Assembly: GCF_008728635.1 (NCBI RefSeq)
Contig: NZ_CP044285.1
Coordinates: 3,658,001-3,722,000 of the forward strand
DNA length: 64,000 nucleotides
Direction: 5' to 3'
DNA from: Hymenobacter baengnokdamensis
Lineage (GTDB): Bacteria > Bacteroidota > Bacteroidia > Cytophagales > Hymenobacteraceae
Each line of letters opens with the position of its first letter. The first letter of the stretch is position 1. A model generated the notes under the pieces. That model was not told where the DNA came from and searched no databases. It worked only from the letters and a program-made list of their open reading frames with translations. A program made the translations under genes and the position numbers. This document shows, piece after piece, positions 3,204 through 8,085 of the stretch.

Positions 3204-6200
3204 CTATTGTATACCACAGGGGATTTGCTGCGTGCCGGAGCTACTGTAGTGTTCGATGGAAAAGACATCCGAAGTGCCCACTACATAGCCACTGGCGTTG
3301 GTAATAGTACACTGATACAGCTGTTTAGCCTGCGCCGACGAGCTAGCCGGTGATTGACCGCTTGCTAAGACTGTAATCGAGGAGCTAGTGAGCCCCGGCA
3401 TCTCTTGCCAAGTAGATGTACCTGGTGTGATAGACCTCCAGGTATAGGTGTAGCTACCTGGAATATCTATATGAACATTAAATGTTGTGCTCGAAGTATT
3501 GGTAGCCGAAGAACCACAAGTATTTTCGAGCCGGTTGGCCACCGCACCACAGTTATCAATGGCGACTACCCCATTAGTGCACGAGGTGATGGTGATAGGG
3601 GCAGGCCGAACAGTAATAAACTGATAACTAGTAGACGTCTTGCTTTGACCACTGATGCGCACCAGGAGCTTTACCTGATACACTTGTTCCTGAGTAGGGG
3701 CGCTGAAGCTATGCTGGGCACTGGGAGTCGATGAGAAAGCGGTCATGGTGTTATCGCCGAAGTCCCAGCTGTAGCTCAAGTCTGTTCCACACGCACTGTT
3801 TGCCGTAAACGTGAGCGGGCTGCCGTCCTGCTGGATTCCGCTAACCACGAAAGAGGGCGCAATAGCTGGCGTGCGCCCGGCAACTACCTGGTCCAGCTGC
3901 TTCACAATCGCGCCATTATGGTCGCGCACCCTGACCAGGCTACCTAGCACGTTATAGTCGTAGAAACTGGTACGCCCCCGCCCGTCGGTTTCGGAGGTTT
4001 TGCCCCTCGTTAAGTCATAGGTCGTGCTGGTTGCCACAGCAGTTGCCGGTAATAGGAGCACGTCATCCACCTGTAGAGCCGTCGAGCCGTTGTTGAGCAA
4101 TTGAAGCGCTAAGCCGGTAGGCGATGCAGCCCCCAGGTTGATAAGCAACTCGTACAGCTGCCATTGTCCGGTAGCCGAAGTGATAGCCAGGGGCTGGGTA
4201 GCTGGCAGGGTTCCGCCCGTACTGCTCGTAAAAGTCAGCAAGAGGGAGCCGGCGCTACTACTCGTGCGGCGAGCCCAAAAGCTTAGCCGATAAGCTGGCG
4301 CCGTAGACGTAGGCCACCGGCTGCTCAGAAACGCATTGACGGGAAGCTCCATGCCTGCCTGGCCGGTACGAGCGGCCGGCCCGGAAGCAGCAAGTGGTTG
4401 GTTCGCGCTGGTCGAGGCTGAAAAAGCATAGTCCTTTTCCGACTCGAAATCCGAAAAGACTACTTCGCTTGCTAAGGCATTGGCAAGCTGCAGCACAGGC
4501 AATGTATTGGCATACCCTAAGTGAATAGCCGTGACCTGGCGGCCGGCCTCGGTCCGGGTAGAAAGTGGCTGCAGGTGGCTGGTTGTCTCTAGTAGAGTAG
4601 AGGTCCGCTTATAGCCGTCTGGCACATGTAACTCCGAGCTGCCGGCCGCATTTACAATGACCTGAATGGAGTCATTCGAGCCGCTTATGCCTCTGACTAG
4701 TGGGGTAGCCGGTTGGTAGCGGAAGGTTTGGTAAGGACGAGTAGGCCCAGGCTGGCTGGTAGTTGTAAACGTATTGAGCGTACCCCCAAGAAAGCTCACC
4801 TGACTGGTCGGACTGACTACTTCCGAAATGGTTTCTACTACGTCCCCACTGCTTTGCCAGTCCCCTGAAGCTATCCGCTGCTGCATTGCAAGCAGCCGGG
4901 CCTCACTCGTTTGAGCGGTGAGCGGATAGTCCGTTAGGTACTTGTAGCGGGTGCGGTAATAGCTGCCCTCACTCGTGCGCGTTGCCTGGGCCGCGAGCCA
5001 GCCGCGACTGTTGTAGTTGTACTGGGTAAGGCTTTGATTCGCAGTGCCCGACGCATTAGGCGTGAGGGAGGTTTGCTGCCGCACCGCGTACAGAAAATCG
5101 GTTAGAATCGGATACTTGGCATAGGCATACACATTATCAGGCCCGCTCAGTAGCTGCTCATATACTAAGCCGGTGACGGGGGGCAAAGTCGGGGCTAAGT
5201 TGCGGTATTGGTAAGTAAAGGTTTCCTGACGCACCGTAGCTCCCGCGGCATTGCCGACCGGTTCGGCCAGGTAGAGAATACTTTGTGGCAGCCCGCGCCG
5301 AAAATCGTAGTTGGTAGCCGGGGCAAAGGGATAGAGGTCAGTACTTGCCTGCAGGGGAGCGACCGACGGGCAGGTGGTCGTGCCATGGGGTGCTACGGTA
5401 CGACTTTGGCGGGCTACGCCCATCGCAGCCCGGGCCCAGCTGATACCGGCTGCGGCCCCATCTGCTGCCGTAGTTTCGTCGGCACTGCCGGGCACCAGAT
5501 AAGTAGTTATTACCTGGCCCTTGCCGGGTAGCTGCTCACTCACCTGCTGATACCCAATGGCACGGGTCTCGAAGGGGTCGGTCGTTAAGTCATCTCCGCA
5601 GCGGGCCGTGGCATTAGTCCATTGCTGCTGCGCGGTCGCTTCACTGGCGGGCAGGGCAAGCGCGAAATGTGGTGCCCGTAGTAATAGGCCGCTGGCCGAG
5701 CCATTAGCCAGCTGGTAGCCATACTCCCGGCGGGTTTCCAGCCCCGTAATCCCGTCCTGGACCCGAATGGCCCGGATGCGGACGCCCCCTGCCGGATAGG
5801 ACTCCTGAGCTACCGGGTCGTAAAAGCGGGGAGCTTCGTACTCTAACAGGGCTTTACCACCACCCGGTAGGCTTACGCCGGTAAGGGTGCCCGCTAGAGC
5901 CGTTTTGAAATTGGGGGCTGGTCGACGGTCAGCCCCCGGTAGGGTAAAGCCACCGCCGGCATACGTAGGCGATTCGTAGAGGCGGTAAGGTGCCGCGGGA
6001 ACGACAGTAGCTTGCCCTAGTAATTGCGGATAAACATACAGCTGGGGAATCAGCGTACTACTGCCATTGGCGTTGTAAAAACCCCAGTAGTCCCGGTCAT
6101 TTGCTCCAAAGGGCGGCAAGGCAACCGTTGTAGCGGTTGTCTGGTCATAGGTAAAGGTGTAAAGAGGTTGCGTGGCACAGCCATTACTGACGCGAATACT

Positions 6201-8085
6201 CGTTAGAAACCGACGCGGATTGTAGAAGTCTACTAATGGACCTCCCTTTTTATCATACCAGAGTCCCCCGAGGGGAACTGGGTTAATATAATCAAATAAA
6301 TATTGTTTTACTAATTGTCTCGTAAGGGAGGAAGTTATCGTCGCCGCTGTAGCGAAATAATCGGTTTGGCCGGTTAAGGTTAGGTCAAAGGTGATGGTCG
6401 TTGCGGCAGAGCTGACGGACTGAAGCCAGTACTGCGTACTAGTCGTTTCCAGTTTGTAATCCTCGGTACCAGCGCCACTGTCTGCGCCGCGCGCCATACG
6501 CCGCGAGGTCTTATCCGATTGACCATCGGGCGTAGCAGTGGCTAGATAGGTGAAGTTTATCTGGTCGCCCGCGCTAGTGCTGTGTCAGGGAAATTTATTA
6601 CCTAAAGAATCGACTGGCTCCCCCTCTCCTTTTCGGAGAGGGGGCCGGGGGGTGAGGCGCCCACCAGAACGATTAGGTAAGGAACTTGCCTGACGCAGCA
6701 CTAGTCGTTATAGTAGAAGCCTGCCAGGAAGAAATATAGGTTAGCGCCGTGTTAGTATCCGAAAACTTATACAAGCTATAGTCCCGCAGGAAATAGCTGG
6801 GACTGGCCGTAACATCGGTTGCTTTTTTTGTTATCGTCTCAGGTTTGTTAAACACGTAGCTTGTCCCATCGGTCGTCTGAATAGTAAAGGCCGAAATGCC
6901 TGCACCTATGTCAATAGAGCCCACCGTAATCGTAATAGGGTCGTAGGGGATGGTGCGCGCCCGGCCTTGCCCATCAAAGACAAACTTGCCCGTATGCCCC
7001 GGCAGAGAATACGAGAAGACGTCGGGCTCTGAGTCATACAGGTTCAGGGGAGAAGCGCCGGCAAGCGCCTGCGGAATATTGCCTATCTGCGTGAGTAGCT
7101 GATAGGCGGTTTGTTCCCCCGCCGTACAGCCGGCAGCATCCAGCGCAGCCGGCGGATTGGGAACCGCATCGATAGTCGCTTGGACAGCAGTGCTAGTCGA
7201 TGGGTACAACAGCCAGCCATACCGATTTTGATTTGGGCCAAGTACTTGCCGGTCATCTGGTAAGTCGCGTACTTCTCGATGGATGCTCACTTGCCCGGTC
7301 AACGCCCAGTTCATACCCACTTTCCCCCCTTGGTCATCAACCTGTACCCCGGCAGCCGCATAGGCCAGGCCCAGTGGCACGGTAACGTTACCGGCCTGTA
7401 CCGTATGGAGCGGTACATATAGCTGGGCCGTCCCCGTGAATTTATCAACCGTTATTTCCTGAGGAAACCAGCCGGCAGTCGAAGCAGCTCCTGTTTTAAA
7501 TCCAGCGCTGGCTGGGTCAGGCTTAACCTGTATGTAGTCCAGGTTAATCCAACCCGTGTCGTCCGCATCATAGCGAACCATAATGGTGTTGCTACCAGCC
7601 CGCAGGTTTAAGACCAGGGTGGTTGTCGCCCAAGCAGACCAGGAATTAGTCGAGGGAAAGAGCGCCTGAGTTACATCGACGTTATTGACGTAGACGCTCA
7701 GGCTCGACACCCAGGGGCGAGCAGCAGTGTAGCGAAAATCAACGGCATACGTCCTGGTTTCCGGAACCGAAACGGCTGTAAACGTTACGGCTGAAGCGCC
7801 ACGCTGCGTAATGTATTCGGCGTAGCCAATGCCGGCTGCCGAAGCTGTGCTCGCGCTCGTTAGCACAGCTACCTGCGGGTCCTCTGCCTGATAAATTCCC
7901 TGCCCCCAACTGGAAGTTGCGGCGCCGAGCAGCCAGAGCAGCGTACACATCACGAGCAAGCCAACACGGGGGTTGCCAGCATTAGACCCCGGTCTAGTGG
8001 CAAAGCGCTTGCGAAGACTAATTGCCCGCCAGGTCAGCGCTTCCTTGTAAGTAACAGCATGGAAAAAAGAGGAAACGTTGACCAT
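3204..8085 (-). pseudogene. Giant secreted CBM/PKD RHS-type protein, split by a 123-bp MITE
   Basis: Two minus-strand pieces, 8085-6673 (470 aa) and 6497-3204 (1097 aa), are halves of one gene. Removing the insertion at 6578-6700 plus one CTAG copy (127 bp) joins them in frame: ...ASTITTSAGDQINFTYLA..., giving about 1584 aa. The N-terminus has a long basic leader and hydrophobic signal (about residues 40-61). A CBM6/CBM35-like sugar-binding domain follows (YQAEDPQVAV to WINLDYIQVKP, about 64-190), then the entry segment typical of Bacteroidota RHS proteins (GWFPQEITVDKFTGTAQLYV). The second half has RHS-like repeats (YDYNVLGSLVRVRDHNGAIV), a jelly-roll-like domain, and a PKD domain (SYSWDFGDNTM). 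The last residues SGKFLT and the TAA of the 470-aa piece come from the insertion itself. The short form could still be exported, but it lacks the repeats. Confidence 0.88.
6578..6700. mobile_element. MITE-like element, 123 bp, 28-bp terminal inverted repeats, CTAG target duplication
   Basis: Termini are 28-bp inverted repeats (6578-6605 and 6673-6700) matching at 23 of 28 positions: outer ends TGCTGTGTCAGG and CCTGACGCAGCA, inner ends TTACCTAA and TTAGGTAA. The element is flanked on both sides by CTAG (6574-6577 and 6701-6704), a direct 4-bp target duplication. The interior has no room for a transposase and carries a GC-rich hairpin (CCCCCTCTCC...GGAGAGGGGG, about 6620-6644). A 4-bp YTAR-type duplication is known for IS5-group transposases, so mobilisation in trans by such an element is a reasonable inference. 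No transposase gene occurs in this window. Confidence 0.85.

What the first reader, a model, noticed from the sequence alone, without database searches (positions are those of the whole stretch)
6574..6704. A 123-bp MITE with CTAG target duplication splits a giant RHS-family gene, and removal restores one reading frame exactly
Seen: 28-bp terminal inverted repeats (23 of 28 matching), CTAG on each side, and no coding capacity. Removing the element plus one CTAG (127 bp) joins the 470-aa and 1097-aa pieces in frame, giving ...ASTITTSAGDQINFTYLATA.... Inverted repeat, target duplication and frame restoration all agree. Inference: a recent non-autonomous insertion, mobilised by a transposase that duplicates CTAG (IS5-like).
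Basis: partly seen in the sequence, partly recalled or inferred. Interest (0 to 1): 0.8.

Follow-up and report, generated by a model that had tools for sequence, protein, structure and literature searches.

The report
IS630-type MITE carrying DUF559-linked hairpin
A small parasitic DNA element, moved in all likelihood by a resident IS630-type transposase, has split a large gene in what appears to be a Hymenobacter bacterium; its middle part is a hairpin that elsewhere brackets genes for a Vsr-like nuclease (DUF559), which points to a possible second mobile system.

Summary
The window lies in a 4.43-Mb chromosome, taken to be Hymenobacter. The element has 28-bp inverted ends (23 of 28 matching), and four complete copies occur in the genome (three identical, one 98%). 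Relatives carry both halves of the split gene side by side in one protein (20 of 33 examined).

The interpretation needs two corrections. First, the partner is not IS5-like. Four identical 1,223-bp IS630-family elements in the same genome share similar ends and CTAG sites. An empty site in a BRD67-like genome rules out a 4-bp CTAG duplication for one copy and fits TA. Second, the inside is not filler. Its 62-bp centre is a hairpin unit; 57 bp are identical to the end of a DUF559 cassette in another Hymenobacter.

DUF559 (Vsr-like nuclease) genes are bracketed by inverted repeats, mostly such hairpin units, in 45 of 49 Hymenobacter loci, 10 of 24 other Bacteroidota loci and 8 of 15 plasmid loci; controls gave 0 of 196. 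I found no description of this link in the papers searched. The MITE is ordinary in kind; the DUF559 bracket is the interesting part.

The parts
6577..6701 (.).
6575..6576 (.). TA target duplication, left copy (inside CTAG 6574-6577)
6702..6703 (.). TA target duplication, right copy (inside CTAG 6701-6704)
6577..6605 (+). left terminal inverted repeat, GTGCTGTGTCAGGGAAATTTATTACCTAA
   Evidence: similar to both ends of the resident IS630 element (gapped score 22 and 21 of 29; best of 2000 shuffles of this end against one IS end 17)
6673..6701 (-). right terminal inverted repeat
6611..6672 (.). embedded hairpin unit; 6616-6672 (57 bp) identical to the downstream end of the DUF559 cassette in L130 (genome G080)
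   Evidence: unit also found outside the MITE in this genome and genus
6620..6644 (.). 10-bp-stem hairpin CCCCCTCTCC-TTTTC-GGAGAGGGGG
6673..8085 (-). N-terminal piece of the interrupted gene (470 aa, CBM35/CBM6)
3204..6497 (-). C-terminal piece (1097 aa from the first ATG; the frame is open up to 6572 beside the element; PKD domain)

Best explanation
The feature is a non-autonomous IS630/Tc1-mariner-type element. Its two 28-29-bp ends are recognised in trans by the transposase of a resident 1,223-bp IS630-family IS, and it inserted at a TA within CTAG in a large gene with carbohydrate-binding and PKD domains, splitting it (the split is shown by relatives; mobilisation in trans is inferred). 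The ends are wrapped around one complete hairpin unit of an independent repeat family. Paired, inverted copies of that family bracket DUF559 (Vsr-like nuclease) genes, and gene-less pairs also occur. The MITE is therefore a composite: an IS630-type shell around the end unit of a probable DUF559 cassette (composition shown; how the unit got in is inferred, perhaps by insertion at the centre of a palindrome).
For: Four complete copies in the genome, three identical. Four identical IS copies with similar ends, CTAG on both sides and the same A7 run where two reading frames overlap; the L001 MITE directly adjoins one of them. HTH and DDE_3 domains; NCBIfam IS630 at 136 bits against cut-off 100 for the second frame, 64 bits (below cut-off) for the first. 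ISY100, an IS630-family element, duplicates TA (abstract and passages of PMC2170065); a study of IS630 preference for TA within CTAG was seen only as a title in its reference list. Empty site for copy L004 in G005, a genome identical to BRD67 over the one 3,130-base locus compared. Gene whole in relatives. 57-bp exact identity of the core with a cassette end. DUF559 bracketing 45/49, 10/24 and 8/15 against 0/196 in controls.
Against: The IS and MITE ends are similar but not identical (10 to 12 of the first 13 bases), so another, unseen IS could be the mover. A 3-bp CTA duplication is not strictly excluded. No copy of the MITE without the hairpin unit was seen, so insertion of the unit into an older MITE is unproven. 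This genome's only DUF559 gene (L172) is not bracketed.
Confidence: 0.87

Rival explanations
1. An IS5-type transposase that duplicates the 4 bp CTAG moved the element.
For: CTAG on both sides of 5 of 6 MITE copies and all 4 IS copies measured.
Against: The only IS I found with such ends is IS630-family (the listing is capped); copy L004 has GTAG/CTAG flanks and its empty site in G005 does not fit a CTAG duplication.
Confidence: 0.04
2. The inner hairpin is an ordinary REP spread by a RAYT (Y1) transposase and its link with DUF559 is incidental.
For: Two Y1_Tnp genes exist in the genome; GTAG-type hairpin pairs, the kind tied to RAYTs in print, occur in the metH-metF gap of relatives (my reading of the sequence).
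Against: No hairpin with this 7-bp stem core lies within 1.5 kb of either Y1_Tnp gene, whereas DUF559 genes are bracketed in 45 of 49 Hymenobacter loci.
Confidence: 0.15
3. The hairpins beside DUF559 genes are transcription terminators or insertion hot spots, not ends of a mobile cassette.
For: REPs are predominantly downstream of coding regions (PMC3733652 abstract); the metH-metF gap holds several hairpin families and so looks like a hot spot; the left and right units of a locus are not private partners (own partner best in only 8 of 49).
Against: They sit on both sides, inverted (38 of 49 loci clearly better inverted than direct, 3 the reverse), mostly over 40-60 bp; gene-less inverted pairs with similar ends exist; a DUF559 gene is present in 6 of 30 metH-metF gaps and absent from the other 24.
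Confidence: 0.25

Closest known systems
IS630 / Tc1-mariner insertion sequences and their MITEs
   Same: Transposase family, inverted ends, TA within CTAG target, small non-autonomous copies; two overlapping frames with an A7 run (that such frames are common in IS630 elements is recalled)
   Different: The cargo between the ends is a DUF559-type hairpin unit rather than a deletion remnant of the IS
REP/REPIN repeats and RAYT transposases (GTAG super-family)
   Same: Short palindromic units, often in inverted pairs, bracketing a gene for a DNA-cutting enzyme
   Different: Here the bracketed gene is a Vsr-like DUF559 protein, not a Y1 HUH transposase; unit sequence differs
CGTC-tagged REPs (Di Nocera 2013, PMC3733652), said to lack a dedicated transposase
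   Same: 5-base loop; some units here carry CGTC near the stem on the gene side; pairs are inverted
DUF559 / Vsr-like endonucleases (e.g. Caulobacter VsrA, PMC12907096)
   Same: Same domain family
   Different: The Caulobacter study (passages read) treats it as a predicted mismatch-repair endonuclease, not as part of a repeat-bracketed cassette

Membership tests
IS630-type MITE | Terminal inverted repeats shared with an autonomous element | tested here: met
   Gapped score 19-22 of 29 against both IS ends; best of 2000 shuffles of the MITE left end against one IS end 17
IS630-type MITE | No transposase of its own, under about 300 bp, several copies | tested here: met
   125 bp; 4 complete copies in G000, 2 complete copies measured in BRD67
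IS630-type MITE | TA target duplication | tested here: met
   TA on both sides of the 6 MITE and 4 IS copies measured; empty site for L004 fits TA and not CTAG; CTA not strictly excluded
IS630-type MITE | Autonomous partner encodes an IS630/DDE_3 transposase | tested here: met
IS630-type MITE | Moved by that transposase | not testable with these tools
   needs a transposition assay
IS5-type MITE | Partner IS of the IS5 family and 4-bp CTAG duplication | tested here: not met
RAYT-associated REP | Units flank a Y1_Tnp gene | tested here: not met
   Two Y1_Tnp loci in G000, no such hairpin within 1.5 kb; other genomes not tested
CGTC-tagged REP | 8-9-bp stem with AT at its foot, CGTC tag, CCA tail | tested here: not met
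   Stem 10 bp, C/G-rich; loop 5 fits; CGTC only in some copies (definition from section 6 of PMC3733652)
DUF559 cassette end unit (proposed here) | Same unit found inverted on both sides of DUF559 genes | tested here: met
   57-bp identity to the downstream end and 50 bp to the upstream end of L130; 45 of 49 Hymenobacter loci bracketed by inverted repeats
DUF559 cassette end unit (proposed here) | Cassette is mobile | tested here: inconclusive
   Presence/absence at metH-metF (6 of 30) but no base-exact empty site

The most novel reading that the evidence does not exclude
DUF559 Vsr-like nucleases are the dedicated enzymes of a widespread class of C-rich, two-arm hairpin repeats (C-arm, spacer, C-stem, loop, G-stem), forming REP-like mobile cassettes in Bacteroidota, Alphaproteobacteria, Deinococcota and Cyanobacteriota. 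Such units can be captured inside other transposons, as in this MITE.
Probability: 0.5. Interest if true: 0.85.

Novelty: new variant of a known kind. Interest (0 to 1): 0.6.

Why it matters
The MITE alone is a routine case of gene disruption. Its core leads to a regular, testable association between a common orphan nuclease family (DUF559, found in 87 of 101 Hymenobacter genomes searched) and palindromic repeats. Some repeats of the REP kind have been reported to lack any dedicated enzyme (CGTC REPs, PMC3733652). If DUF559 cuts at these hairpins, it would be a second, non-HUH solution to REP spread, and it would change how 'Vsr-like repair' annotations are read.

Tried and rejected
IS5-like origin: rejected on the transposase family and on the L004 empty site. 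RAYT as mover of the hairpin: both Y1_Tnp loci of this genome lack it. Rfam found only the tRNA in the window. A precise empty site for a DUF559 cassette was sought in 30 metH-metF gaps (the 30 best of 61 genomes); the gap is a hot spot that also holds other hairpin pairs, so the ends could not be fixed to the base. The idea that the left and right units of a cassette are a private pair failed: only 8 of 49 loci had their own partner as best match (mean own score 81, cross 70). High copy number of the unit outside Hymenobacter is not shown: a Deinococcus unit had 4 places in 3 plasmid records and a 241-bp Pseudanabaena stretch only itself. The first, crude count of bracketed loci (20 of 30 both sides, 7 one side) is superseded.

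Limits: 1 of 30 Hymenobacter and 5 of 29 other Bacteroidota loci were dropped because the contig ended near by. The 30 are the best-scoring loci and the 20 were picked by me from the listed rows (a capped list), so loci are neither random nor all independent. Negatives: 4 of 49 Hymenobacter loci (L133, L139, L172, L176), 14 of 24 and 7 of 15 in the other groups. Of the 8 plasmid positives, the Neisseria (L224) and S. meliloti (L234) alignments are not clearly the unit. A separate two-arm pattern test gave 11 of 24 and 7 of 15 with the units read outer-to-inner on both sides (11 and 8 read the other way, since the stem is palindromic), controls 0 of 104 and 0 of 29; a unit on at least one side in either reading was seen in 21 of 24, 14 of 15, 6 of 104 and 13 of 29.

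Full report
WHAT IS THERE. The window is part of a single-contig 4,428,884-bp chromosome. An exact scan for the element's end in one genome per species returned three loci, all from Hymenobacter sp. BRD67 (the tool warns that the window's own record may be left out), so I take the host to be a Hymenobacter. Four complete copies occur in the genome, three identical and one 98%. BRD67 holds others, two of them complete with CTAG on both sides, of 121 and 135 bp; a third (L111) lacks a recognisable second end.

THE SPLIT GENE. The 470-aa and 1097-aa frames were kept apart throughout. Their phase differs by one base and 127 mod 3 = 1. Searched separately against about 5.8 billion proteins, both pieces hit the same proteins, among them Hymenobacter arizonensis and H. 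saemangeumensis records. In 20 of 33 relatives examined the two matches abut; in 7 they are 47-87 aa apart, mostly where the query is unaligned too; in 6 the N-terminal piece finds no match. Pfam assigns CBM35/CBM6 and PKD and no RHS model; 'YD repeat-containing' is one UniRef label. No toxin domain was seen in the Pfam and NCBIfam scans.

THE PARTNER IS. One MITE copy (L001) lies directly next to a 1,223-bp element with the same kind of ends. That element is present in four identical copies, all with CTAG on both sides and an A7 run where two transposase frames overlap. The frames carry HTH and DDE_3 domains and match NCBIfam's IS630 model (136 bits, cut-off 100, for the second frame; 64 bits, below cut-off, for the first). 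Elements of about 85% identity occur in other Hymenobacter genomes, G005 included; 45 of 101 genomes had some match, many of them short. The MITE and IS ends share 10 to 12 of their first 13 bases.

TARGET DUPLICATION. CTAG is palindromic, so most copies cannot tell a CTAG from a TA duplication. Copy L004 can. In G005, a genome identical to BRD67 over the one 3,130-base locus I could compare, the empty site reads AGCACTACTGAGCG; the filled site has AGCACTAG before the element's TGCTG and GCACTACTGAGCG after it, the GCA being the element's own end. A 4-bp CTAG duplication does not fit; TA does, with the adjoining G and C belonging to the element. Taken with the other copies, a 3-bp CTA duplication is not strictly excluded. 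IS630-family ISY100 duplicates TA (abstract and passages of PMC2170065); the same paper's reference list names a study of IS630 preference for TA within CTAG (title only).

THE INSIDE OF THE ELEMENT. Bases 6611-6672 form a complete unit with a 10-bp-stem hairpin. The unit also occurs in inverted pairs without a MITE shell in this genome, inside a second MITE-like family with other ends (L009, L010, L011, L013), and in a mosaic with one end of each (L007). Matches to it were found in 35 of 37 genomes of the genus, the window's own included, and in 2 of 22 others. One inverted pair in another genome (L096, G022) held a small open frame, which is one of the DUF559 matches.

DUF559. Searching PF04480 found it in 87 of 101 Hymenobacter genomes and 109 of 198 Bacteroidota genomes. 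Testing for inverted repeats between the 400-bp flanks, 45 of 49 Hymenobacter loci, 10 of 24 other Bacteroidota loci and 8 of 15 plasmid loci were positive; two of the plasmid positives are doubtful. Controls with the same test were negative: 0 of 105 window tiles, 0 of 33 BRD67 tiles, 0 of 29 metF loci, 0 of 29 other loci. A separate two-arm pattern gave 11 of 24, 7 of 15, and 0 of 104 and 0 of 29 in controls. The MITE's core shares 57 identical bases with the downstream end of the cassette in L130. The 94 DUF559 loci aligned have no stop within the match and an invariant D63 and E74 (94 of 94 each), with D76 in 92 of 94; a solved relative is PDB 3hrl. The metH-metF gap has a DUF559 gene in 6 of the 30 loci fetched. 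Gene-less pairs were seen in L148, L151 and L158 (the last partly by reading the sequence). Against: this genome's own DUF559 gene is not bracketed (L172), and the two units of a locus are not each other's best match in 41 of 49 loci.

READING. The MITE is IS630-type (high confidence). That it is a shell around a DUF559-cassette end is shown by sequence; the route is inferred. REPs sitting inside palindromes have been reported (section 7 of PMC3733652, passage), and the unit here lies at the centre of the palindrome formed by the MITE's ends, which would fit insertion at a hairpin tip. Whether DUF559 moves the units is the open and testable part.

PRINT. Searches for DUF559 (14 papers, titles and abstract starts seen; passages read of PMC12907096 only), for REP terms with Vsr or endonuclease terms, and for CGTC REPs showed no account of this link (two searches listed only 20 of 23 and 12 of 92 papers). 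Only open-licence PMC papers were covered. Of PMC3733652 I saw the abstract, passages and section 6.

Noticed in passing
L009, L010, L011, L013 (G000 3432870, 1152972, 1466358, 4321394): A second MITE-like family with ends like GCGGATTCTGGGTCAGTGTACG also carries the same hairpin unit near its centre.
   Followed up: partly
L007 (G000:C1:1122039-1122140): A mosaic element: left end of the second family, a variant hairpin core, right end of the first family.
   Followed up: partly
L142-L171, metH-metF intergenic region of Hymenobacter: A hot spot holding DUF559 cassettes, gene-less hairpin pairs or GTAG-type hairpin pairs, depending on the genome; in four genomes (L142, L144, L152, L160) the DUF559 match lies in one long open frame (1,050-1,533 aa), so the upstream metH frame seems to run on into the cassette.
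   Followed up: partly
L229:480-1215 (Pseudanabaena plasmid): A DUF559 gene bracketed by paired CCCCCTAAATCCCCC-type hairpins.
   Followed up: partly
L221 (Sphingomonas parapaucimobilis plasmid): A DUF559 gene with inverted hairpins on both sides sits between sufB and sufC.
   Followed up: no
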